Part shown: piece after piece, positions 12,596 to 56,860 of the stretch
Layout: each line of letters begins with the position of its first letter
Position numbering within the stretch: the first letter of the stretch is position 1
IMG/VR virus record: IMGVR_UViG_3300014501_000012
Location: 20,832 to 84,831 of that record
Length of the DNA: 64,000 nucleotides
Direction: 5' to 3' (one strand)
Source of the DNA: a virus
Notes under the pieces: generated by a model
Seen by the model: only the letters and a program-made list of their open reading frames with translations
Told to the model about the DNA's origin: nothing
Database searches by the model: none
Program-made: the position numbers and the translations under genes

Positions 12596-12942
12596 GCGAA
12601 CCCATCACCAAGGGCCGGCGACTCCAGCCGATCGTGGAGGTCGACGGGAAGCGGCACCTTCCCGAGCTCGAGCACCCGGGCGACTACTGCGGCCCCATCA
12701 CGGGCTACAACGGCCCGGGGCAAGAGGCCTGCTTCTTCCTCAAGCCGAACGCCCGCGACGCCGACGCCCCGGCCCGGGCACGCTCAGTGCAGCACGTCCT
12801 ATTCCCACCGCACACCTACCGGGAGTGCCCTGACGGAAGCCTCGAGATCCGCAACAGCATCGGCGACACAGCCGGCGACGACAAGACGAGCGACGGCTGG
12901 CACGGCTACCTCGACGAGGGTCACGTCTGGCGGCAGGTGTGA
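12592..12942 (+). CDS. Hypothetical connector-region protein
   Basis: 116 residues from GTG, overlapping both neighbours by 4 bases. No transmembrane segment or recognised domain; acidic, with two cysteines in the first half and a C-terminal GWHGYLDEGHVW. Its position in the connector run suggests a small head-completion or virion protein. Confidence 0.7.
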   Translation: MSEPITKGRRLQPIVEVDGKRHLPELEHPGDYCGPITGYNGPGQEACFFLKPNARDADAPARARSVQHVLFPPHTYRECPDGSLEIRNSIGDTAGDDKTSDGWHGYLDEGHVWRQV

Positions 12943-13286
12943 GCACCCAGCTACTCGTCGTAGAGCCGTTCCCCCCCAAACCCCGGGAACCCGGGATGAT
13001 GTGGCGATACCCGCCGGGCGACATCGACGGGCGCGAGTGCTGGTGGATCGAACTGCCCCCCGACTCACGCATCGGGACGCCGGGGCATCCGGGGAACCTC
13101 TCGTGGCGAACGACCGACCGGGCCTCGGAGCCCCCGCACGAGATGTGGGACGTATCAGGCACTCCGCCGCTCTTGACGGTCACGCCCTCGATCGACGTGG
13201 AGTGCTGGGTGATCCGCGGCGGCAAGACCGTCCGTGACGGGTCGTACTGGCACGGACACATCACCAATGGAGTGTTCACGCCGTGA
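12939..13286 (+). CDS. Hypothetical Trp- and Pro-rich structural-region protein
   Basis: 115 residues from GTG, overlapping both neighbours by 4 bases. It reads as a beta-rich domain with several Trp residues (MMWRYPPG, CWWIELPPDSR, GSYWHGHI). No family is recognised. It may be a head-completion or decoration component. Confidence 0.7.
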   Translation: MSTQLLVVEPFPPKPREPGMMWRYPPGDIDGRECWWIELPPDSRIGTPGHPGNLSWRTTDRASEPPHEMWDVSGTPPLLTVTPSIDVECWVIRGGKTVRDGSYWHGHITNGVFTP

Positions 13287-13531
13287 CGTGGGACGACACC
13301 GCCCGCCACCCCGATCCGCCGTACTGGTATCGGGCCGTTTACCGACGCCTGACCGGGTGGAACTGGACGAACCTCGTCACCCAGGTTGACGGGGACCAGC
13401 GCACCTGGCTGAATCCGGCGCAGCAGCCGATCCGAACGCTGCTTGCTGACTGGGCGCGCAACCGCATTTTCCGACGCTACCTGCGGCACTTGGGGCGCAC
13501 GGTGAGTCAGATCATCGGTCAAAAGGGATGA
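13283..13531 (+). CDS. Hypothetical small basic protein
   Basis: 82 residues from GTG, overlapping the preceding gene by 4 bases. Rich in Trp and Arg (PPYWYRAVYRRLTGWNW; RNRIFRRYLRHLG). No domain recognised. Found between the adaptor and terminator-like genes, so probably part of the same late transcript. Confidence 0.65.
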   Translation: MTWDDTARHPDPPYWYRAVYRRLTGWNWTNLVTQVDGDQRTWLNPAQQPIRTLLADWARNRIFRRYLRHLGRTVSQIIGQKG

Positions 13532-13535
13532 CTCC

Positions 13536-14117
13536 ATGACCGACCTCACCGGCACGATCACGTTCCCACCGGGCCAGTGGATCCCGAACGTCGACCAGGT
13601 CACCTCGAGCGCGGCGACGCTGCTGGCGATCGCCGGGAAGGTTCTCGACTCCTACGGCCTGGGGGATCCCTACGAGCGGCGTGTGTTCCTCCACGGGGCG
13701 GAGAGCCGGTGGAACGTCACCGACCCACCCCAGTCCCAGTTGATCGTCCGCCTGGAGAAGATGCACTTCGGGAAGGCCGGCCAGGAGCAGTACCAGTTCG
13801 AGGACGGGATGATGGGGAAGTACGCCCAGCGCGTGATCGTCTACCAGGTCGAGGTCGTCAATCCCTGGCCGCAGTTCCAGGGGAACATTGCCGTGGCTCC
13901 CCCCGACGGGGACGCCCTCGAGTTCGCCGCCCAGGGGCTCTGGCGCGACGGGCTGATCGTCTGGTCGGCACTCGCCGCGACCTCACTCGGCGGGGTCAAG
14001 GTCAACCCCCCGGTCGGACCGATCGCCCAGGACAAGATCCTCGTCGGGCCGATGACGCCGGTCGGTCCGTCAGGCCCGCTCGCCGGGCTCTCCACCGAGG
14101 TCCGGGTCGCCTTTTGA
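13536..14117 (+). CDS. Probable tail terminator or neck protein
   Basis: 193 residues. Early TLLAIAGKVLDSYGL helix, a central RVIVYQVEVVNPWP strand, and an LWRDGLIVWSALAA helix fit the size and layout of tail-terminator proteins, which cap the tail tube at the head side. Support is mainly position and length. The last 48 bases overlap the end of a gene on the opposite strand. Confidence 0.5.
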   Translation: MTDLTGTITFPPGQWIPNVDQVTSSAATLLAIAGKVLDSYGLGDPYERRVFLHGAESRWNVTDPPQSQLIVRLEKMHFGKAGQEQYQFEDGMMGKYAQRVIVYQVEVVNPWPQFQGNIAVAPPDGDALEFAAQGLWRDGLIVWSALAATSLGGVKVNPPVGPIAQDKILVGPMTPVGPSGPLAGLSTEVRVAF

Positions 14118-33418: not shown

Positions 33419-34626
33419 ACACCGTCCGCCGCATCCCCGAGCTCATCGTCCCAGGCAAGCGCCTCGGGCGACACGTCAACCACGACGACCGCTCGCTGGC
33501 CTACGCGCTCCCCGAGGCCGACACCGTGGTCAGCGTCCAATGGTCCCGGGTCATCCCAATTTTGGATCAGGGGGCCGTCGGCGCCTGTACTGGCAACGCA
33601 TGCACCGGGATCCTTGGGACCGTGCCCGATTATCGGGACCTCGCGGCCAAGCTCGCCGCTGGCCTGGTTCTCGACGAAGCCGAGGCTTTGACGCTGTACT
33701 CGGCGGCCGAGACGATCGACGGTGACGGCCCGTACCCGCCGAACGACAACGGGTCCTCGGGACTCTCGGTAGCTCAGGCGGCCAAGAACGCCGGGCTGTG
33801 CTCGGGCTACGTCCACGCCCTGAGCGTTGCCGGGGCCCACACCGCCATCCAGGCCGGCCCGTTCATGGTCGGCTCGGACTGGTACACGAGCTTCGACACC
33901 CCCGACCCCAACGGGCTTGTGGCGATCGCTCCCGGCGCCACCGTCCGCGGCGGCCACGAGTACGAGTGCATCGGCTACGACGCGGCCAGCGACCTGTGGC
34001 ACCTGGTCAACTCCTGGGGGACCACCTACGGCGTCGAGGGGCACTTCTACTACTCGACGGCCACCTTCGCCGATCTTCTCGCCAGCGATGGGGACGTGAC
34101 CTCGTTGGTCCCGTTGAGCCTGCCTGCCCCCACGCCCTCCCCGGCGCCCGCTCCCCCGGCTCCTGCGCCGACGCCGAGCCCACCGCCATCCCCCGCACCA
34201 GTCCCAACCCCACCGCCGTCCGGGTGCAGCCCGTTCGGCTCGAACAGAGGAGCAGCCATGGCCGCCTACCAGAACGCGACGGACGTCCCCGACCGCGTCA
34301 TCGTTCCCTCGGTGCCGATCCCTTCGATCCCCCTGCCGACGTGGAGCGATCCGGCGTCGGTGACTGCCTTCATCATCTCGGCCACCACCCTCACGCTCGG
34401 CATCCTGACGATGTTGCACGTGACCGTCCCCGCGAGCGTGTCGAACAACGTCACCACGTGGGCGGGGCTCGCCGGAGTCGCCATCGCCGCGCTGGTGCCG
34501 GTGTTCAACTGGGTCCGGGTCCACCTCGGGAGCAAGGTGGCGATGCAGATGGGGGTCCCGGTGCGCAACCGCTACGGGGCGGTCTATCTGACGCAGGGGC
34601 CTGCCAGACCATCCATACAGGGCTGA
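33415..34626 (+). CDS. Papain-like (C1) cysteine peptidase fused to a holin-like membrane domain
   Basis: 403 residues, GAGGAGA before the ATG. Residues 40-225 have the C1 peptidase layout: DQGAVGACTG with Gln52 and Cys58, GGHEYECIGYD with His181, and LVNSWG with Asn199. A proline-rich linker follows (about 233-268). The C-terminal part from 282 has two hydrophobic segments (AFIISATTLTLGILTMLHV; AGLAGVAIAALVPVFNWV). All catalytic residues are present. The location in the lysis cassette suggests a role in envelope breakdown, or cleavage of a host surface protein. Confidence 0.8.
   Translation: MNTVRRIPELIVPGKRLGRHVNHDDRSLAYALPEADTVVSVQWSRVIPILDQGAVGACTGNACTGILGTVPDYRDLAAKLAAGLVLDEAEALTLYSAAETIDGDGPYPPNDNGSSGLSVAQAAKNAGLCSGYVHALSVAGAHTAIQAGPFMVGSDWYTSFDTPDPNGLVAIAPGATVRGGHEYECIGYDAASDLWHLVNSWGTTYGVEGHFYYSTATFADLLASDGDVTSLVPLSLPAPTPSPAPAPPAPAPTPSPPPSPAPVPTPPPSGCSPFGSNRGAAMAAYQNATDVPDRVIVPSVPIPSIPLPTWSDPASVTAFIISATTLTLGILTMLHVTVPASVSNNVTTWAGLAGVAIAALVPVFNWVRVHLGSKVAMQMGVPVRNRYGAVYLTQGPARPSIQG
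34258..34626 (+). CDS. Internal in-frame start giving a free holin-like protein
   Basis: ATG 34258 lies inside the peptidase frame with AGAGGAG at 34246-34252, 5 bases upstream, a better ribosome site than most annotated starts here. The 122-residue product would hold only the two membrane segments and a basic tail. The phage may thus make both a peptidase-holin fusion and a separate holin from one gene. Confidence 0.55.
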   Translation: MAAYQNATDVPDRVIVPSVPIPSIPLPTWSDPASVTAFIISATTLTLGILTMLHVTVPASVSNNVTTWAGLAGVAIAALVPVFNWVRVHLGSKVAMQMGVPVRNRYGAVYLTQGPARPSIQG

Positions 34627-34633
34627 GAGTCCT

Positions 34634-34648
34634 CGCCGCTTAGCGGCG
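34634..34648. terminator. Short hairpin between convergent genes
   Basis: CGCCGC (34634-34639) pairs with GCGGCG (34643-34648) around TTA, which is the stop codon of the minus-strand gene. It could serve both strands as a terminator; no T tract follows. Confidence 0.35.
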
Positions 34649-34774
34649 CGCCCAGCACGGGTCGTCCATCTCCAGGTCCATCACGGCGATCCGGATCCGG
34701 AGGAGCGCCCTCTTGGCCTCGGGGCTCATGGCGTCCCACTGGGACTGGGTGGTCGGGGTTTCGATCGGGTTCAT
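34640..34774 (-). CDS. 44-residue protein, probably from a leaderless transcript
   Basis: MNPIETPTTQSQWDAMSP begins 7 bases after the -10 box TATACT, the distance expected if transcription starts at or next to the A of ATG. There is no ribosome site. The middle is a helix (EAKRALLRIRIAVMDLEM) and the end is CWARR. Function unknown. The perfect promoter spacing is the main evidence. Confidence 0.6.
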   Translation of the reverse strand: MNPIETPTTQSQWDAMSPEAKRALLRIRIAVMDLEMDDPCWARR

Positions 34775-34777
34775 GGG

Positions 34778-34788
34778 TACTAGTATAC
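34778..34788 (-). promoter_or_regulatory. GTATACTAGTA promoter element, copy 2
   Basis: Reads leftward as GTATACTAGTA with TATACT as -10, driving the 44-residue gene. It faces away from copy 3, about 90 bases to the right. Confidence 0.65.
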
Positions 34789-34805
34789 ACGGCCGACCCC
34801 CGAAT

Positions 34806-34857
34806 ACCAGGGGTTTCGACCAGAAATAGGCGGGAGTTTCTCCCCGTTTGCCCTGGT
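34806..34857. promoter_or_regulatory. Inverted repeat between divergent promoters
   Basis: ACCAGGG (34806-34812) and CCCTGGT (34851-34857) form a 7-base inverted repeat lying between two outward-facing promoters, a typical place for an operator. The binding protein is unknown. Confidence 0.35.
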
Positions 34858-34874
34858 AATCGGGTGGGGACCAT

Positions 34875-34885
34875 GTATACTAGTA
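34875..34885 (+). promoter_or_regulatory. GTATACTAGTA promoter element, copy 3
   Basis: TGTATACTAGTA with TATACT at 34876-34881, followed by CCCACCAGGC and CCCAAGGAGG, the conserved leader type. It drives the gene at 34923. Confidence 0.7.
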
Positions 34886-34922
34886 CCCACCAGGCAGGAC
34901 CCGACCCAAGGAGGAAGCCCAG

Positions 34923-35288
34923 ATGGGACTCGTAATCAGTGTTTGCAGGGAAGTCGAGACCGGAGATTGCACGGCTGGCGGGATCTCCGGTCGGCACGGC
35001 CGCCTGACCGTGGTCAACATCGACGGGCCGTTCGACCCGACGCCTGACGCGCCCGCCGTCGCCCTGATCGACGGGCATCGGCCCGGCGACAAGATCCTGG
35101 TCCCGGTCATCTCTAACGGCGTCGCGTACCAGCGCGTCAGCCCAGAGGGGTTCACGGGTCCGATGTTCGGCGGCAACTTCGGGGCCACCTCGGACAGCCG
35201 ATTCGGTCGGGCGACGGGGATCTACGGCGCCATCCCGATCCACGACCGGTTCGAGACCCATGAGGTCTATGCCGCGATGTCGGACTGA
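34923..35288 (+). CDS. Hypothetical early protein
   Basis: 121 residues, AAGGAGG upstream. Beta-rich with two cysteines near the N-terminus (VCREVETGDC) and a glycine-rich end (GPMFGGNFGATSDSRFGRATG). No family recognised. It stands alone behind its own promoter, which suggests strong early expression. Confidence 0.7.
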   Translation: MGLVISVCREVETGDCTAGGISGRHGRLTVVNIDGPFDPTPDAPAVALIDGHRPGDKILVPVISNGVAYQRVSPEGFTGPMFGGNFGATSDSRFGRATGIYGAIPIHDRFETHEVYAAMSD

Positions 35289-35326
35289 CCCTCGGTAGCA
35301 TCATGGCTGGGCCTTTCAGGAGGGGT

Positions 35327-35374
35327 CCCACGACGCGGGAGGTTCTTTCGAGGGACCTCCCGTTGTCGCGTGGG
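35327..35374. terminator. Long hairpin after the early gene
   Basis: CCCACG (35327-35332) and CGGGAGGT (35336-35343) pair with ACCTCCCG (35355-35362) and CGTGGG (35369-35374) with internal bulges. The right arm contains AGGGACCTCCC, also found in the hairpin at 63082. The 290-base gap from 35289 to 35585 otherwise holds only the palindrome at 35541 and no ORF that I support. Confidence 0.5.
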
Positions 35375-35540
35375 TGGTGTTACGATCCGCGGCCAGGGAA
35401 CCGTCGCCATAGCGGCGTTTCCTCCTTGGGGCGAGCGTCCGCTCTTCCGGGTTCGACGGGTCCTTTGCGGGTCGCCCAGCCAACTCCGGGGGGGCGGGCG
35501 TTCGCATGTCACACCCTCGTCGTAGGGTTGGTGCTGGCTC

Positions 35541-35554
35541 GCTACACCTGTAGC
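35541..35554. promoter_or_regulatory. GCTACACCTGTAGC palindrome, copy A
   Basis: A 14-base palindrome with an asymmetric centre, 31 bases before the YqaJ gene. GGGTCTACCC follows at 35560-35569. Likely operator or promoter core of the recombination and replication operon. Confidence 0.6.
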
Positions 35555-35585
35555 GGGTAGGGTCTACCCACCCAAGGAGGTGCCC

Positions 35586-36557
35586 ATGACCGTGACTAGC
35601 GAAGTGATCGACGCCCACGCCGAGGTCGTCGTCGAAGACACGACGAAGTTGGAGCGGCCCGAGTGGCTGGCTTTGCGCCGGCTCGGGATCGGCGGCTCCG
35701 ACGCGGCGGCCGCTCTCTCGCTCAGCCCCTACGACTCGCGCTACGCCCTGTGGGTGGACAAGACCATGGGCGTCGACGACGAGGACAACGAGTCGATGTT
35801 CTGGGGGCGCCAGCTCGAAGAGGCCATCGGGCGCGGCTACGCCATCAAGACGGGCAAGGTCGTCGAGCGGTTCCCCAAGCTCCTGCGGTCTCGGCGGTGG
35901 CCCCACATGCAGGTGAACCTCGACTTCATCAACCCGGCCGAACTCGAGGTCGTCGAGGTCAAGAACACGGGGGCCCACATGGGCGACCTGTGGCAGGACG
36001 ACGATGGCCGCCCGGTCGTCCCCCCGCACTACGCCATCCAAGGGCTGCACGAGCTGGCGGTGACCGGCTTCGAGCGCACCACGTTCCCCGTCCTCGTCGG
36101 TGGCAACCGGATGAAGATGGTCACCATCGAGCGCGACGACAAGGTCATCGAAGACCTGGCCGAGGCCGAGGCGGCGTTCTGGAAGCTCGTCGAAGAGAAC
36201 ACCCCTCCGGCCGTGGATGGCAGCCGGGCGACGTCGGAGACCCTCGCCGCCATCTACGGGGACCCCGACCCCGACAGCATCATCGCCCTCGACGACTATC
36301 GCACCTCCGACGGGGAGTCGGTACCTGATCTGGTGAAGGGCTACAAAGACGCCGCCGCCCGAGTGAAGGCGGCGAAGGACGACCAGGACTACTACAAGAA
36401 CAACCTTTTGGCGGCCATGGGTGACTTCGAGGTCGCCATCATCGGTGGCCATCCCGTCGTGACCTTCAAGAAGGTCGACAACGGGGGCTACACCAGCGTC
36501 GTTCAACCGTTCTCCTACCGCCGTATCAACACCAAACCCAAGGGAGCCCAGAAATGA
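35586..36557 (+). CDS. YqaJ-like exonuclease (phage recombination nuclease)
   Basis: 323 residues, AAGGAGG before ATG. Residues 25-210 follow the YqaJ fold: RRLGIGGSDAAAAL, then the core E-V-K pattern VVEVKNTG near 120, and HYAIQGLHELAVTG. It would degrade one strand of linear DNA and hand single strands to RecT, whose gene follows with a 4-base overlap. Metal-binding acidic residues are in place. Confidence 0.85.
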   Translation: MTVTSEVIDAHAEVVVEDTTKLERPEWLALRRLGIGGSDAAAALSLSPYDSRYALWVDKTMGVDDEDNESMFWGRQLEEAIGRGYAIKTGKVVERFPKLLRSRRWPHMQVNLDFINPAELEVVEVKNTGAHMGDLWQDDDGRPVVPPHYAIQGLHELAVTGFERTTFPVLVGGNRMKMVTIERDDKVIEDLAEAEAAFWKLVEENTPPAVDGSRATSETLAAIYGDPDPDSIIALDDYRTSDGESVPDLVKGYKDAAARVKAAKDDQDYYKNNLLAAMGDFEVAIIGGHPVVTFKKVDNGGYTSVVQPFSYRRINTKPKGAQK

Positions 36558-37906
36558 CCACGACAGCGACACCCACCGCCAGCACCGACTCGGTCGGCGC
36601 CGCCATCGCCGAGCGCCGCAACAGTCCTGAACGCGCCGGCAAGACGATGGCTGAGCACGTCCGGGACCACCGCGAGGCGATCGCCAGCATGCTCGGTAGC
36701 GAGGCCAAGGCCGACCGATTTATCTCGGTCGCGTTGCACCACTACAACGAGAACGGGTCGCTCAAGAACGTGACCATGCCGCTCACGATCCTGGGTGCCA
36801 TCATGCGGGCGGCCTCGCTACGACTCGACTTCACGCTGGACACTTGCTACATCGGCCCGCGCAAGAAGAAGGTCGGCAGCGGGTGGGCCACCGTGGCGCA
36901 GTTCCAGCTCGGATACAAAGGAATCATCGACCTCGCTCGGCGGTCACAAGAAATCAAGGAGATCGTCGCGCGGCCCGTATACGCGGGCGAGCCCTTCCAG
37001 ATCTGGACGGATGAACTAGGCGACCACATGCGCCACGAGCGTCACCCTGAGCTGCAAACCGGCGATATCCTTTTTCACTACTCGCTGGCCGTGTTCACGA
37101 ACGGCGGCAGCAACATTCAGATCGCCACGCTGGAGGATGTCGCCAAGCGGCGCGAGGCGAGCGACATGGGAACGTCCGAGTACGGGCCGTGGGTCAAGTG
37201 GCCGGTCGAGATGGCCAACAAGACGGCTGTCAGGATGCAGTCACCGTGGCTCCCCCTCAGCGTGGAAGCCCGCCAGGGAATCGAAGCGGACGAGACGGTC
37301 GTCGAATACACTCCGAGCGGCTTCATCCGGGAGGCGCCGAGCCCGGCCGAGGAGCCTCAGCCCCCCGACGGGCTGGACGCCGGGACCCCGACGCTCGGGC
37401 GCGAGAACGTCCTGGAGAACATCGTGGGCTACATGGAGGCGCTCGAGCCCAAGGACCGCAACGCCTGCGGGTCGTACCTCTTGCGTACCTACGGATCGCT
37501 CGACCGGGTCCCCGACGAGCAGTTGGCCACGGTCCTCGAGATCGCCCGAGACTGGGCGGAGAAGGGCCAGCCGGGCGGTGGCCCCCAGACGGCCTCAGAT
37601 GCCCCAGGAGCCCCGGGGGGTGCCGAACCCCCGTCAGAGGCGCCAGCGGGGCGGGACGGTGCCGATCTGGGGGAGTCGGGGCAAACGGGCGACCCCCAGC
37701 CTGGGCCATCGGGCCGGATCGATGAAGACCTCCTCGACAAGACCCAGCGGGTGATCGAGACCTGGACACCCGAGCAGGTGGACCGGATCAGCCGGGAGTG
37801 GGAGATCCCGGTGCAGGGCAAGATCGAGGCGCGCCGGCTCCGTCTCGTCGAGCGCCTGACCCGCGAGCGCCAGGCCGGGAACCAGGCGGCGATAGATCTC
37901 TTCTAG
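36554..37906 (+). CDS. recT: RecT-like single-strand annealing protein
   Basis: 450 residues, overlapping the nuclease gene by 4 bases. Residues 50-250 show the RecT pattern (FISVALHHYNENGSLKNVTMP, LDTCYIGPRKKK, AQFQLGYKGIIDLARRS, VYAGEPFQ). The C-terminal 200 residues are longer than usual: a Pro/Gly-rich linker surrounds two helical segments (about 275-345 and 385-445). Works with the YqaJ nuclease in phage recombination. Confidence 0.9.
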   Translation: MTTTATPTASTDSVGAAIAERRNSPERAGKTMAEHVRDHREAIASMLGSEAKADRFISVALHHYNENGSLKNVTMPLTILGAIMRAASLRLDFTLDTCYIGPRKKKVGSGWATVAQFQLGYKGIIDLARRSQEIKEIVARPVYAGEPFQIWTDELGDHMRHERHPELQTGDILFHYSLAVFTNGGSNIQIATLEDVAKRREASDMGTSEYGPWVKWPVEMANKTAVRMQSPWLPLSVEARQGIEADETVVEYTPSGFIREAPSPAEEPQPPDGLDAGTPTLGRENVLENIVGYMEALEPKDRNACGSYLLRTYGSLDRVPDEQLATVLEIARDWAEKGQPGGGPQTASDAPGAPGGAEPPSEAPAGRDGADLGESGQTGDPQPGPSGRIDEDLLDKTQRVIETWTPEQVDRISREWEIPVQGKIEARRLRLVERLTRERQAGNQAAIDLF

Positions 37907-37932
37907 GTCCCCGGCCCGATCTGGGCTCCCGC

Positions 37933-37943
37933 GTATACTAGTA
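37933..37943 (+). promoter_or_regulatory. GTATACTAGTA promoter element, copy 4
   Basis: GTATACTAGTA with TATACT at 37934-37939, then a short leader with CCCAAGGAGG before the ATG at 37974. It would re-initiate transcription behind recT. Confidence 0.65.
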
Positions 37944-37973
37944 ACCATCCCCAAACCCAAGGAGGGAAACCCC

Positions 37974-38237
37974 ATGAGACCAGTGCACCCGGAGGACAAG
38001 TCCGTCGTCGAGATCCTGCTACTCGGCGCGGCGGTCGGCGCGTTCATCACCGGGGCGGTCCTCGCCCTGGCGCTGTCGCCGGGGGAGATCGGCCCGGAGG
38101 TCGGGGTCTTCGTCGGTGGCGTCGCCGTGGCGGTGATGTTCGTCGGGCTCGCGCTCGCCGTCCACTTTCACCGTCAGGCGCGGTTTGCTGAGGCCCGCGA
38201 CTTCTGGGCGTGGAAGCGCCGCGGGCAGCTCCGGTGA
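37974..38237 (+). CDS. Two-helix membrane protein
   Basis: 87 residues with two membrane segments (ILLLGAAVGAFITGAVLALAL and VGVFVGGVAVAVMFVGLALAV) and a basic cytoplasmic tail. It is the first gene behind promoter copy 4. Early phage membrane proteins of this type often act in superinfection exclusion, but nothing in the sequence proves this. Confidence 0.65.
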   Translation: MRPVHPEDKSVVEILLLGAAVGAFITGAVLALALSPGEIGPEVGVFVGGVAVAVMFVGLALAVHFHRQARFAEARDFWAWKRRGQLR

Positions 38238-38947
38238 AAGCGGCGGTCATCCCGATCGGTCGGATCAAACCCTCCGAGGTCAACCCCCGCTTCGAGCCCC
38301 GTGAACTCGAGGGCCTGACGCAGTCGATCCGGCAGTACGGGATCCTCGAGCCCCTGTTGGTCCGGGCGATCCCGGGTGACCGGGAGCACGTCGAACTCGT
38401 CGCCGGTTCGCGCCGGCTGGCGGCAGCGAGACTCGCCCGGCTGAGCGAGGTCCCGGTTGTGTTCATGGCGGCGATGACCATCCCCGACCAGCGCGTCCTC
38501 TCGTTGACGGAAAACCTCCACCGGTTGGACATGACGCCGATCGAGAAGGGTGAGACGTACTTACAGATCGCCCGGGAGCGCGGGATCAACCAGACCGAGG
38601 TGGCGAAGCTCTGCTCCGTCTCCCCGTCCGAGGTGAGCAACTTCATCGGGCTCGTCCGGCGGGCCTGTCCCGAACTTCGGGAGGCGGCGCACCTAGGGAC
38701 CGTCCCGCTTTACGTCGCCATGGAGTTGGTCAAGCTCCCCCACGAGCGCCAGCAGGCGCGACTGGCATCGAGGAAGACCAAACACAAGACCGGCCAGGAG
38801 CGGGTCCGCAACTCGGCGACGTCGGGGTACGAGCAGTACTCGGTCAATCTCGGGCGCGCCCGAAGCGCCTTCCTCAACGAGGACTGGGAGACGGCCGTGG
38901 AGTACCTGGAGAAAGCCGTGGCGATGTGCGAGCGGCGGTTAGCGTAG
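38234..38947 (+). CDS. ParB-like protein
   Basis: 237 residues from GTG, 4-base overlap. The N-terminal ParB/Srx-like domain shows IPIGRIKPSEVNPR, LTQSIRQYGILEPLLVR and ELVAGSRRLAAARLA. A helix-turn-helix follows (INQTEVAKLCSVSPSEVSNFIGLVRRA, about 124-150). It could bind specific phage sites and act in partition or replication. No ParA gene is nearby. Confidence 0.85.
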   Translation: MKAAVIPIGRIKPSEVNPRFEPRELEGLTQSIRQYGILEPLLVRAIPGDREHVELVAGSRRLAAARLARLSEVPVVFMAAMTIPDQRVLSLTENLHRLDMTPIEKGETYLQIARERGINQTEVAKLCSVSPSEVSNFIGLVRRACPELREAAHLGTVPLYVAMELVKLPHERQQARLASRKTKHKTGQERVRNSATSGYEQYSVNLGRARSAFLNEDWETAVEYLEKAVAMCERRLA

Positions 38948-38951
38948 ATGC

Positions 38952-39266
38952 GTGGTGATGATCGCCCGATTCCCCTGGCAGGCAGGAGCCATCTGCGAGG
39001 ACGTCGACCTGTTCTACGGAGACGACCAGGACGCCCGGGAGGAAGCCCTCGCCACCTGCGCCCAGTGTCCGGTCATCGTCGAGTGCCGGGAATACGCGAT
39101 CTACCACGAGGAGTTCGGAACGTGGGGTGGCACGTCCGAACGCTACCGACGGCGTTACCGGGCGCGCCACGACATCGCGATCTCGTCCCCCCAGACGGTG
39201 TTCGACCTGAGCGAGCGGGCGCTGGCCCGACGCGCGGCGGCGGCCGCGGCAGCGGAAGCCTCCTGA
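38952..39266 (+). CDS. WhiB-family iron-sulphur regulator
   Basis: 104 residues from GTG. Four conserved cysteines (GAICEDVDLFYGD; ATCAQCPVIVEC) and FGTWGGTSERYRRRYR, a variant of the G-V/I-W-G-G turn, define a WhiB-like protein. These bind a 4Fe-4S cluster and sigma factor in actinobacteria, and phage versions repress host genes. Confidence 0.85.
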   Translation: MVMIARFPWQAGAICEDVDLFYGDDQDAREEALATCAQCPVIVECREYAIYHEEFGTWGGTSERYRRRYRARHDIAISSPQTVFDLSERALARRAAAAAAAEAS

Positions 39267-39278
39267 CCGGAGCGTCCC

Positions 39279-39503
39279 ATGGCTGACGAGGCCGCCCGCC
39301 TCCGCGACGTCGTCCAGGTCCTCGAGGAGGAACTGAACCTCACGGCGACGACCGCCGGGGACCTCCTGGGTTACATCGACGGGATCCTGCGCGAGGTCCA
39401 CCGGACCCACCACGACGGGGCGACGAAGTGGAAGGACTGTCCGCGGTCGTTGTGTGAGCGCGGCCGGATCTCGTTCGCCAAGCTCGGGATCGAGCCGACG
39501 TGA
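39279..39503 (+). CDS. Hypothetical small protein
   Basis: 74 residues. Helical (RDVVQVLEEELNLTATTAGDLLGYIDGILREV, about 9-42), two cysteines near the end. Overlaps the exonuclease gene by 4 bases. Unknown function. Confidence 0.65.
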   Translation: MADEAARLRDVVQVLEEELNLTATTAGDLLGYIDGILREVHRTHHDGATKWKDCPRSLCERGRISFAKLGIEPT

Positions 39504-40237
39504 CCGACCGCTGGCCAGCCGGGCTACTCGCTGGCTTCGACCTCGAGACCACCTCCGCCTCGCCGCACGAAGCCCTCCCCGTCTCCTACGCCATCGTCCG
39601 CTTCGACTTCGGCCAGCCGACAAAAGGCAAGACCGGACTCATCGACCCCGGCGTTGAGGTCCCCGAAGAGGCGACGAAGATCCACGGGATCACGACCGAC
39701 CGCGTGCGGAGCGAGGGGCAGCCGATCGAGGAGGCGGTGCCCGAGATCTGCGCGACACTGCTCAAGGCCCGAGACGCCGGCGCGCCGATCGTCGGGATGA
39801 ACATCGCCTACGACCTGACGATCATGGACCGCCTCTCGCGTCAGATCATGGGGACCCCGCTCCCCGACCTCGCCCCGGTGCTCGACCTCTACGTCATGGA
39901 CAAGCACTACGACAAATGGCGGAAGGGAAAACGGACGCTCACCGACCTCGCCGCGCACTACGGGGTGGAGATGGGCGAGGCCCACGACGCGGTGGCCGAT
40001 GTCGAAGCCGCCGTTCGATGCGTCCTGGCGCTCGTCGACAAGCACCCGGGCATCGCGCGCTTCGACCCGAAACACCTTCACGACTGGCAGGTGAAATGGA
40101 GCCTGGCGCAGAACGAGGACTTCTCGGCGTACCGGGTCAAGCAAGGCGGCAAGCCCCTCGACCCCTGGGACTTCGGGTGGCCGATCCGCAACGCTCTCCC
40201 CGGATCGCCCGTGGATTCCGCGGCGGCGGAGGGCTAG
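39500..40237 (+). CDS. DnaQ-like 3'-5' exonuclease
   Basis: 245 residues from GTG. DEDDh motifs are all present: GFDLETTSA (Exo I), VGMNIAYDLTIMD (Exo II) and HDAVADVEAA (Exo III). It resembles the proofreading subunit of polymerase III. A second gene of this type lies at 60357. No polymerase is seen in the window, so it may act on its own or with the host enzyme. Confidence 0.85.
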   Translation: MTDRWPAGLLAGFDLETTSASPHEALPVSYAIVRFDFGQPTKGKTGLIDPGVEVPEEATKIHGITTDRVRSEGQPIEEAVPEICATLLKARDAGAPIVGMNIAYDLTIMDRLSRQIMGTPLPDLAPVLDLYVMDKHYDKWRKGKRTLTDLAAHYGVEMGEAHDAVADVEAAVRCVLALVDKHPGIARFDPKHLHDWQVKWSLAQNEDFSAYRVKQGGKPLDPWDFGWPIRNALPGSPVDSAAAEG

Positions 40238-40263
40238 GGTCGCGCGGTCATCGAACGCGACGA

Positions 40264-40291
40264 AGGCTCCCCATTGCAGGACAGGGAGCCT
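40264..40291. terminator. Hairpin before the initiator gene
   Basis: AGGCTCCC (40264-40271) pairs with GGGAGCCT (40284-40291), loop 12 bases. It could end the recombination operon transcript or attenuate the initiator gene. No T tract. Confidence 0.45.
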
Positions 40292-40319
40292 CCGCCAAAA
40301 CCGCACGATGGAGGTGCGC

Positions 40320-40361
40320 ATGGAAAGCCTATCCGATCTGGCGGCGAGCATCCCTAAATGA
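40320..40361 (+). CDS. 13-residue leader peptide coupled to the initiator gene
   Basis: ATG 40320 has GGAGG 5 bases upstream and encodes MESLSDLAASIPK. Its stop overlaps the ATG of the next gene (ATGA). The initiator start at 40358 has no good ribosome site of its own, so this mini-ORF probably feeds ribosomes into it. Confidence 0.4.
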   Translation: MESLSDLAASIPK

Positions 40362-41227
40362 CGGCGAAGAAGCCGCAGGAGGGGGTCGTCCTCAAAACCA
40401 GGTTCGCCCAGGTCCCCGAATGGGTGGCCCTGCACCCCGCCATTCTCAAGCACCCTACGGCCCTGGCCGCCTACGTCCACCTCTTCCTGCTGGGAGATTT
40501 CAAGGCGCGGATCACCACCAGCGACTGGCGGGAGCTGAGCGACGTGACCGGGTGGTCGAAACCCACGGTCATGCGAGCGATGAAGGTGCTCCGGGATGCC
40601 GGGGTGGTGGTCAGGGAAGGGGCTGACCTGCGGCTGCCCATGGACCTCCCCGGTATCAAATCTGACACCGAAGCCCCAGATCTCGGTATCAAATCTGATA
40701 CCGGACCGCGTCAGATCCGAGACCCGATCGCGTCAGATGTGAGACCCCCTCCTTTTAGTACAGAGAATTCAGAGGTTCCTCATAGTGTCGACGCTGTCGC
40801 GTCGACCGACATTCGGTCTCTGTGCGATCTTCTCTCCGAAGAAGTGGGCAGATACCTTGGCGATCCGATCAAAGCACCAGCGGTCACTGCCCGGTGGACA
40901 AACGACATGCGGCTCCTACTTGAAAAGGGGCCTCTCCACCGAGCCAAGTCGGAAGTGATCGCACCTGACCGGGTTCGTCGGTGCATTCGGGTCGTGTTCG
41001 ATGAGTTGGCCGAACCAACTGGTAGCCGCGGGTTCTGTTGGGCGGCGCAGATCCGCTCCCCCGGCGCCCTTCGGGATCATTGGGATCAGGTCGCTGAGGC
41101 CGCCAAGCAATCACGAGCAACTGGGTCGAACGGCAAGAAAGATCCACTCCGCCGCGGCCTCCCTTCTCTCAGCGATCTGTGGAAAATCGCAGAGGGTGCC
41201 GATCAACAAAAGGAGCTGACCCCATGA
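40358..41227 (+). CDS. Replication initiator, lambda O-like in plan
   Basis: 289 residues. Residues 30-90 form a winged helix-turn-helix (TTSDWRELSDVTGWSKPTVMRAMKVLRDAGVVV). Residues 99-130 are a linker encoded by four iteron-like repeats. The C-terminal part (155-250) is helical and probably recruits partners. A DNA-binding domain, ori inside the gene and a loader-like gene next to it reproduce the lambda O and P layout without evident sequence similarity. Confidence 0.65.
   Translation: MTAKKPQEGVVLKTRFAQVPEWVALHPAILKHPTALAAYVHLFLLGDFKARITTSDWRELSDVTGWSKPTVMRAMKVLRDAGVVVREGADLRLPMDLPGIKSDTEAPDLGIKSDTGPRQIRDPIASDVRPPPFSTENSEVPHSVDAVASTDIRSLCDLLSEEVGRYLGDPIKAPAVTARWTNDMRLLLEKGPLHRAKSEVIAPDRVRRCIRVVFDELAEPTGSRGFCWAAQIRSPGALRDHWDQVAEAAKQSRATGSNGKKDPLRRGLPSLSDLWKIAEGADQQKELTP
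40652..40747. repeat. Four iterons inside the initiator gene, candidate replication origin
   Basis: Four copies of TCARATNYGANACC start at 40656, 40689, 40711 and 40733, spaced 33, 22 and 22 bases, close to whole helical turns. The second is part of the palindrome GGTATCAAATCTGATACC. A comparatively AT-rich stretch follows at 40752-40790, suitable for unwinding. Confidence 0.65.
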
Positions 41228-41745
41228 CCATGATTCCTCAGGAAGATCCGAACCCTCGAGCACGGGCCGTGATCTCTACGCTGCGCCAGGCCGGGTGTCG
41301 GCCGGAGTTCGGATTCGACCAGGAGCAGGCCGAGGAACTATGGGAGACGAAGCTCGCCGCGTTCACGCTGCCCATGTGCGCGGCGGCGGCGAACGCCTGG
41401 ATCGAGGCAGGCGACAGAGAGTTCCCGACTCTGGGCGAGTTGATGACGCTGGCCCAGGGCTTCGCCATAGCTGAGCGCGAGGAAGTGCAGCGGCGGGAGC
41501 GGATGAACCGGGACCCCTTAGCGATGGTTGTTTGCCCGGAGTGTTTCGACGAGCCAGTCGGGTGGGTCGAGGTGATCGAGCTGGCCGGCGCGAGGGCTCT
41601 GCGCCCGTGTTCGAGGTGTCTCCCCGATAGGTACCGAGCCTGGCGCGGCGGCCATTTCGCCCTAGGCCACGACGAGGCCCGGTGCCGGGATACGTGGTGC
41701 GTCGAGACGGTGAGGCGGCGCAAGCATGGCCGAAAGGCTTCCTGA
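41224..41745 (+). CDS. Helicase-loader-like protein with zinc ribbon
   Basis: 173 residues, 4-base overlap with the initiator. Residues 15-75 (EELWETKLAAFTLPMCAAAANAWI, then REFPTLGELMTLA) follow the N-terminal domain of SPP1 G39P-type helicase loaders. The C-terminal half contains CPECFDEP and CSRCLPD, a zinc ribbon, and ends basic. It would deliver host DnaB-type helicase to the origin. Confidence 0.55.
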   Translation: MTMIPQEDPNPRARAVISTLRQAGCRPEFGFDQEQAEELWETKLAAFTLPMCAAAANAWIEAGDREFPTLGELMTLAQGFAIAEREEVQRRERMNRDPLAMVVCPECFDEPVGWVEVIELAGARALRPCSRCLPDRYRAWRGGHFALGHDEARCRDTWCVETVRRRKHGRKAS

Positions 41746-56087: not shown

Positions 56088-56860
56088 GCGAGCCCATGGT
56101 CGAAAAGGTGCTGGTCCTCTGGACATGCAATGCCGATATGTCAGGGAGGAACCGGGAATGGAGTTACCCGGAGTCCGGACATATCGAGGCACGCCGTCCT
56201 GCTACGGCAGACGCCGCCTGCTCGAACGGGCTCCAAGGGTTGATGTGGGGTGTCGGCGAGGGGGGGAACCTCCACCTGACAGTCGAAGATGCGAAGTGGC
56301 TTGTTATGGAAGTCGATGCGGCATCGGTCACCGACCTCGGCGGGAAAGTGAAGTTCCAGAGCGCCGATGTCGTCTACTGCGGTGACCGCGCTGGGGCGAT
56401 TGCCTATCTCGATGCCAACGGAGGAGCCGACAAGGCGGTGTTCGGTGCGGCGCGCACCGCCGGGTACCAGGGCTCAGCCACCGCCGGGTACCGGGGCTCA
56501 GCCACCGCCGGGTACCAGGGCTCAGCCACCGCCGGGTACCAGGGCTCAGCCACCGCCGGGGACCGGGGCTCAGCCACCGCCGGGGACCGGGGCTCAGCCA
56601 GGGCGTCATCGAGTGGCGTCATCGTCATCCATTGGTATGACAGCAAGATCGGTCGGACGCGTTTGGTTGTCGGCTACGTCGGAGAGGACGGACTAAAAGC
56701 AAACACCTGGTACTGCCTCGACGAGGATCACCAGTTCATCCAGTGCAGCGAACTTGAGAGCGAGAGCGAGAAGCCACGGCCGTTCGATGCCAGGGTCAAG
56801 TGGAATGCTGGGACACCAGAGGCCGACCTACAAACCCCAACCCAAGGAGAGAACCCATGA
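56084..56860 (+). CDS. Protein with six perfect-period 8-residue repeats
   Basis: 258 residues. Residues 125-172 are six tandem copies of TAG(Y/D)(Q/R)GSA. N-terminal domain (1-120, with DVVYCGDRAGAIAYLDANGG) and C-terminal domain (VIVIHWYDSKIGRTRLVVGYVGEDG) flank it. The repeat could form a small beta-helix. Function unknown. Confidence 0.75.
   Translation: MSEPMVEKVLVLWTCNADMSGRNREWSYPESGHIEARRPATADAACSNGLQGLMWGVGEGGNLHLTVEDAKWLVMEVDAASVTDLGGKVKFQSADVVYCGDRAGAIAYLDANGGADKAVFGAARTAGYQGSATAGYRGSATAGYQGSATAGYQGSATAGDRGSATAGDRGSARASSSGVIVIHWYDSKIGRTRLVVGYVGEDGLKANTWYCLDEDHQFIQCSELESESEKPRPFDARVKWNAGTPEADLQTPTQGENP
56456..56599 (+). repeat. Six 24-bp tandem repeats
   Basis: Six head-to-tail units of ACCGCCGGGTACCAGGGCTC plus AGCC, differing mainly at the base changing Gln to Arg and Tyr to Asp. 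They are in frame with the gene at 56084 and encode its octapeptide repeat. Confidence 0.95.

What the first reader, a model, noticed from the sequence alone, without database searches (positions are those of the whole stretch)
40652..40790. Lambda-like origin inside the initiator gene, made of four iterons
Four TCARATNYGANACC repeats at spacings of 33, 22 and 22 bases lie between the DNA-binding and C-terminal parts of the gene at 40358, followed by an AT-richer stretch. Lambda gene O has its origin in the same place. Next door is a loader-like gene. The arrangement is visible; the role is inferred from that parallel.
Basis: partly seen in the sequence, partly recalled or inferred. Interest (0 to 1): 0.8.

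Follow-up and report, generated by a model that had tools for sequence, protein, structure and literature searches.

The report
Phage replication origin inside initiator gene
An actinobacterial phage appears to start copying its DNA at four short mirror-image repeats that lie inside the gene for its own origin-binding protein, the arrangement classically known from phage lambda; the same repeat also serves other, unrelated phage initiator genes.

Summary
Four TCARATNYGANACC repeats start at 40656, 40689, 40711 and 40733 (spacings 33, 22, 22). None is expected by chance, and they fall in all three reading frames, so they are DNA signals and not a peptide repeat. Each is the core of an 18-bp dyad, GGTATCA-N4-TGATACC (copies 3 and 4 have one weak arm). 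The most AT-rich 40 bp of the gene (40749-40788; top 0.02% of the 84.8-kb record) follows directly. The record's GC-skew minimum region spans the locus.

The carrier gene (289 aa) has an N-terminal winged helix that weakly matches 'replication initiation O-like'. The next gene overlaps by ATGA, as lambda P does O, and has a weak G39P-loader-like stretch. No DnaB was found in the record.

Lambda, a P22-type phage, Arthrobacter phages and several prophages show the same layout. The same dyad recurs in Paenibacillus Phage_rep_O genes, a RepA_N gene and others; a scrambled control gave no hits.

Verdict: a lambda-like intragenic origin, very probably correct in function, with an orphan initiator that fails Pfam Phage_rep_O. 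New member of a known kind; one operator shared by unrelated initiators is the more interesting lead. Nothing was tested experimentally.

The parts
40358..41227 (+). Initiator gene (289 aa): N-terminal winged helix (about residues 46-92), linker encoded by the iterons, C-terminal part of unknown family
   Evidence: ORF; MarR_2/HTH_24 sub-threshold; phrog_391 'replication initiation O-like' E=8e-5 over residues 59-89
40652..40669 (+). Iteron 1, GGTATCAAATCTGACACC (17 of 18 to the strongest copy)
40685..40702 (+). Iteron 2, GGTATCAAATCTGATACC (best dyad)
40707..40724 (+). Iteron 3, CGCGTCAGATCCGAGACC (weaker left arm; different reading frame)
40729..40746 (+). Iteron 4, CGCGTCAGATGTGAGACC (third reading frame)
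40749..40788 (.). AT-rich block after the last iteron, putative DNA-unwinding element (60% AT)
   Evidence: only 0.024% of 40-bp windows of the 84.8-kb record are as AT-rich; same position in 12 other initiator genes, weak in the two Arthrobacter ones
41224..41745 (+). Downstream gene (173 aa), 4-nt ATGA overlap with the initiator; candidate helicase loader with a G39P-like stretch (residues 23-81) and a CxxC...CxxC motif
   Evidence: BLASTP E=0.001 (single comparison) to a Moorella phage protein that passes Pfam Inhibitor_G39P; own PF11417 search negative

Best explanation
The four dyads are initiator-binding iterons and, with the AT-rich block to their right, form the phage's theta-type replication origin inside the initiator gene. 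A dimer of the N-terminal winged helix binds each 18-bp dyad; about two-turn spacing stacks the dimers on one face of the DNA as in the lambda O-some; the adjacent AT-rich block (40749-40788) melts; the C-terminal part, with the protein of the overlapping downstream gene, brings in the host DnaB helicase and primase. Shown here: repeats, dyads, frame independence, AT-rich block, gene order, skew, recurrence in other initiators. Inferred: binding, melting, helicase recruitment, direction.
For: Repeats beyond chance and beyond codon constraint, in three frames. Initiator-like winged helix. Same architecture in lambda O, P22-type Emek, Arthrobacter phages Renna12 and Marchesin, phiOH2, CBP1, four Paenibacillus genes, L012 and an E. 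ruminantium RepA_N gene: 4-6 repeats at mostly 18-24 bp (some gaps 30-66), 30-59% into the gene, followed by an AT-rich 40-mer. The dyad itself recurs in tandem in initiator genes elsewhere, with no hits for a scrambled control. A matrix from those external iterons ranks exactly these four sites as the top four in 84.8 kb (partly circular). Cumulative GC skew minimum at 37.1 kb, lowest positions 34.3-41.3 kb. No DnaB_C, Prim-Pol, Toprim_3 or DNA_pol_A in the record, so host replisome recruitment is needed. ATGA overlap as in lambda O/P.
Against: No experiment. Skew minimum is 3.5 kb upstream, and the largest mean shift is placed at 45.5 kb, so skew only brackets the origin. The record is a virus contig of unknown completeness. 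The AT-rich block is modest (60%). Pfam HTH hits are below cut-offs; Phage_rep_O does not match. Structure models had low confidence (41.7 and 47.8 pLDDT). The downstream loader is not recognised by PF11417 directly.
Confidence: 0.87

Rival explanations
1. The repeats are an operator array through which the protein (or another regulator) controls its own operon, and replication starts elsewhere.
For: Dyads with a winged-helix protein are also typical of repressors (general knowledge); the gene is compactly packed in an operon.
Against: Autoregulatory operators usually sit at the promoter, and these lie over 290 nt inside the gene; spaced dyads plus an AT-rich block is the origin layout of lambda and of the other compared initiators; GC skew turns in this region.
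Confidence: 0.06
2. Peptide-level repetition (GIKSDT twice) in a flexible linker, not a DNA signal.
For: Copies 1 and 2 are in the same frame and encode GIKSDT.
Against: Copies 2, 3 and 4 are in three different frames and encode unrelated peptides; codon shuffles never give four copies; Paenibacillus and Eubacterium copies also change frame. The 24-bp array at 56455-56600 shows what a peptide repeat looks like: a period that is a multiple of three, all copies in one frame.
Confidence: 0.02
3. Partition (parS-like) or other binding sites, for example for the ParB-like protein encoded at 38210.
For: A ParB_N/HTH protein is encoded 2 kb upstream.
Against: No ParA of family AAA_31 found; the sites lie within an initiator gene, and the same dyad sits inside initiator genes of unrelated phages.
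Confidence: 0.03

Closest known systems
Phage lambda oriLambda within gene O (and P22-type gene 18)
   Same: Four ~18-bp dyad iterons at 20-24 bp in the middle of the initiator gene, AT-rich block immediately right, downstream gene (P) overlapping by ATGA; PMC7466680 for iterons as inverted repeats and the AT-rich unwinding region.
   Different: Different iteron sequence (lambda ATCCCTCAAAACGAGGGA; here GGTATCA-N4-TGATACC); first gap is 33 bp; the protein does not match Pfam Phage_rep_O; no sequence link of the next gene to lambda P was found.
SPP1 gp38 (replisome organizer) with oriL inside gene 38, plus loader gp39
   Same: Repeats and AT-rich element inside the origin-binding-protein gene, with a separate small loader protein (PMC6316719).
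   Different: SPP1 encodes its own DnaB-type helicase gp40 and a second origin oriR (PMC6316719); no DnaB and no second array of these iterons found here.
Paenibacillus-type prophage Phage_rep_O genes (L002, L005, L010, L026, L075, L076)
   Same: Same dyad (GGTATCAGATTTGATACC), four copies in mixed frames, AT-rich block directly after.
   Different: Their N-terminal domain passes PF04492 (three tested); the window protein does not, and a profile comparison is not significant.
Mycobacteriophage Redi gp61 and Arthrobacter phages Renna12/Marchesin initiators
   Same: Actinobacterial phages with RecT/RusA-type modules and initiator genes holding internal repeats at 22 bp.
   Different: Unrelated iteron sequences and no significant protein similarity.

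Membership tests
Lambda-type intragenic iteron origin (functional class) | Three or more repeated sequences inside the initiator gene | tested here: met
   that the protein binds them is not testable here
Lambda-type intragenic iteron origin (functional class) | Iterons are inverted repeats | tested here: met
   Copies 1 and 2 clearly; copies 3 and 4 with one degenerate arm
Lambda-type intragenic iteron origin (functional class) | AT-rich region adjacent to the iterons | tested here: met
   60% AT at 40749-40788, top 0.024% of record; melting itself not testable
Lambda-type intragenic iteron origin (functional class) | Initiator binds the iterons and supports replication from the site | not testable with these tools
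   needs binding and plasmid replication assays
Lambda-type intragenic iteron origin (functional class) | Helicase loader encoded next door; host DnaB used | tested here: inconclusive
   Weak G39P-like similarity, PF11417 negative; no phage DnaB_C in record
Pfam Phage_rep_O (PF04492) | N-terminal domain passes the family profile | tested here: not met
   Not among hits for the window protein at E<=1; lambda O 6e-36 as control; Paenibacillus-type genes 2e-16 to 3e-20
PHROG O-like initiators (phrog_391) | Match along the protein | tested here: inconclusive
   E=8e-5 but only residues 59-89, the HTH
SPP1-type loader Inhibitor_G39P (downstream gene) | Profile match | tested here: not met
   only pairwise similarity to a member

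The most novel reading that the evidence does not exclude
One 18-bp operator, GGTATCA-N4-TGATACC, is a recurrent and perhaps portable replication-origin unit, used by initiators of different families (Phage_rep_O in Paenibacillus-type prophages, RepA_N in Eubacterium, HTH_36 and orphan winged helices elsewhere) in phages of different phyla, through exchange of ori modules or repeated convergence on one winged-helix recognition solution.
Probability: 0.35. Interest if true: 0.6.

Novelty: new member of a known kind. Interest (0 to 1): 0.42.

Why it matters
It locates a probable origin and initiator in a phage with no close sequenced relative, and shows that the lambda layout (origin inside the initiator gene, dyads at about two turns, AT-rich block on one side) can be used as a sequence-only detector of phage origins. 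It also gives a directly testable set of unrelated initiators predicted to bind the same site, which would tell whether origin specificity is as private to each phage as is assumed.

Tried and rejected
Protein searches for close relatives of the initiator in viral contigs and phages gave nothing; the downstream gene likewise. PDB sequence searches gave nothing meaningful. Single-sequence structure models were of low confidence, and the fold search on one gave only noise. RecE gene as anchor in viral contigs: none. Exonuclease gene as anchor: eight distant loci, none with a convincing tandem array of this operator. Of 30 genome-contig pattern hits, most are low-complexity or chance palindromes; only L026 and L033 are clear intragenic arrays, L023 a weaker one. 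Most of the 16 single-site hits lie in unrelated genes and are chance. The variant GGTCTC tandem pattern gave none in viral contigs. Among the tandem hits, L004 and L078 could not be assigned to an initiator gene. A second array at 56455-56600 was considered as an alternative origin and rejected as a peptide repeat. No text match for the iteron sequence in the held papers.

Full report
What was claimed and whether it is there. A pattern scan finds exactly these on the + strand, at 40656, 40689, 40711 and 40733. The two minus-strand matches are the reverse reading of copies 1 and 2, and shuffled sequence gives 0.01 matches on average. Keeping the protein and shuffling its synonymous codons 20,000 times never gave more than two copies. 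Copies 2, 3 and 4 are read in three different frames and encode unrelated peptides (IKSDTG, RQIRDP, SDVRPP). The repeat is therefore a property of the DNA, not of the protein.

Anatomy. Directly to the right lies the most AT-rich 40 bp of the gene, 40749-40788, 60% AT; only 0.024% of 40-bp windows in the 84,831-bp record are as AT-rich. The host gene (40358-41227, 289 aa) carries a winged helix at about residues 46-92 (sub-threshold MarR_2/HTH_24), which PHROGs matches best to 'replication initiation O-like' (phrog_391, E=8e-5, HTH only). The dyads fall between this domain and the C-terminal part. The downstream gene starts at 41224 within the initiator's stop (ATGA).

Context. The record is a virus contig of which the window is the last 64 kb. 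A WhiB-like gene (by inspection of the translation) and RecE/RecT-type genes whose best-represented relatives are in Gordonia and Mycobacterium phages point to an actinobacterial phage. No DnaB_C, Toprim_3, Prim-Pol or DNA_pol_A is found in the record, so a host replisome must be recruited, with the caution that the contig may be incomplete. The cumulative GC skew of the whole record is lowest at window position 37128; its 2,000 lowest positions lie within 34308-41322. Third-position skew of + strand genes changes from -0.13 left to +0.01 right. The skew therefore brackets the locus but does not pinpoint it.

Comparison with lambda and others. In the lambda record, gene O has 299 aa, its four annotated iterons lie at 39-48% of the gene at spacings 20, 24 and 23, and P overlaps O by ATGA. 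The window gene has 34-45% and 33, 22, 22. A de novo repeat search in other initiators found the same plan in P22-type phage Emek, Arthrobacter phages Renna12 and Marchesin, phage phiOH2, Caldibacillus phage CBP1, four Paenibacillus-type genes, L012 and an Eubacterium ruminantium gene. Mycobacteriophage Redi gp61 also has internal dyads at 22 bp. Mimir87, SDFMU, YPHTV1 and Spoks gave none with that search, so the plan is common but not shown to be universal; the same 12-mer search with its strict three-copy rule also scored the window gene zero, so a zero is not proof of absence. In the genes with arrays, an AT-rich 40-mer near the gene maximum follows the last iteron; it is weak in the two Arthrobacter phages. 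Published work describes lambdoid origins as inverted-repeat iterons plus an AT-rich tract in the middle of gene O (PMC7466680) and SPP1 oriL inside gene 38 (PMC6316719).

The same operator elsewhere. Scans for the dyad, single and in tandem, brought in initiator genes from unrelated phages and prophages: Phage_rep_O genes of Paenibacillus type (L002, L005, L010, L026, L075, L076), L012, L073/L077 and L074 (initiator-like by PHROGs), L018, and a RepA_N gene of E. ruminantium whose six copies carry TGAGACC arms like copies 3 and 4 here. A tandem pattern with scrambled arms gave no hit in the same collection, against eleven for the real one. A matrix made only from external iterons ranks the four window sites first to fourth in 84.8 kb. 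This is partly circular, because those loci were found by searching for the dyad of copies 1 and 2. Sharing by chance cannot be excluded: many thousands of initiators exist, and a 7-bp half-site will recur. The window protein and L012 align over the winged helix and iteron-encoded linker (E=5e-6, single comparison), while comparison with a Phage_rep_O profile aligns the recognition helix in register but is not significant.

Loader. The 173-aa downstream protein has no family and PF11417 does not find it. Its residues 23-81 match the G39P-like part of a Moorella phage protein that passes PF11417 and sits in the same 4-nt-overlap position behind its initiator gene (E=0.001, single comparison). 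'Loader-like' is a reasonable lead, no more.

Verdict. The best reading is a theta origin of lambda type within the initiator gene, confidence 0.87. It works like lambda ori; the protein is not shown to be a member of Phage_rep_O, since that profile was tested and not met. As a kind of system it is well known. The part that would surprise a specialist is the recurrence of one operator in unrelated initiators, which needs binding experiments.

Noticed in passing
window 56455-56600: Six-copy 24-bp tandem array inside an ORF; all copies in one frame, giving an octapeptide repeat (TAGYQGSA-type), so a protein repeat and not iterons.
   Followed up: partly
window 40320-40361: Possible 13-codon leader ORF (ATGGAAAGC...AAATGA) preceded by GGAGG, whose stop overlaps the initiator's ATG: suggests translational coupling of initiator synthesis.
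   Followed up: no
window 38210-38947: ParB-like protein (ParB_N plus ParB HTH) with no AAA_31 ParA and no PF00589 integrase found in the record: lifestyle of the phage unclear.
   Followed up: partly
L059 (Redi) 12897-13775: Mycobacteriophage Redi gp61, annotated replication initiation protein, holds internal dyads TCGCGAGACCCTCGCGA at 22-bp spacing; probable intragenic origin of this phage group.
   Followed up: partly
L033 612-1733: RepA_N/DUF6017 gene of Eubacterium ruminantium with six GTCTCA-N4-TGAGAC iterons at exact 23-bp spacing inside the gene, followed by an AT-rich block.
   Followed up: partly
window 40358-41227: Third-position GC falls from 0.89 in the first third of the initiator gene to 0.48 over the iterons and 0.61 after them.
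   Followed up: no
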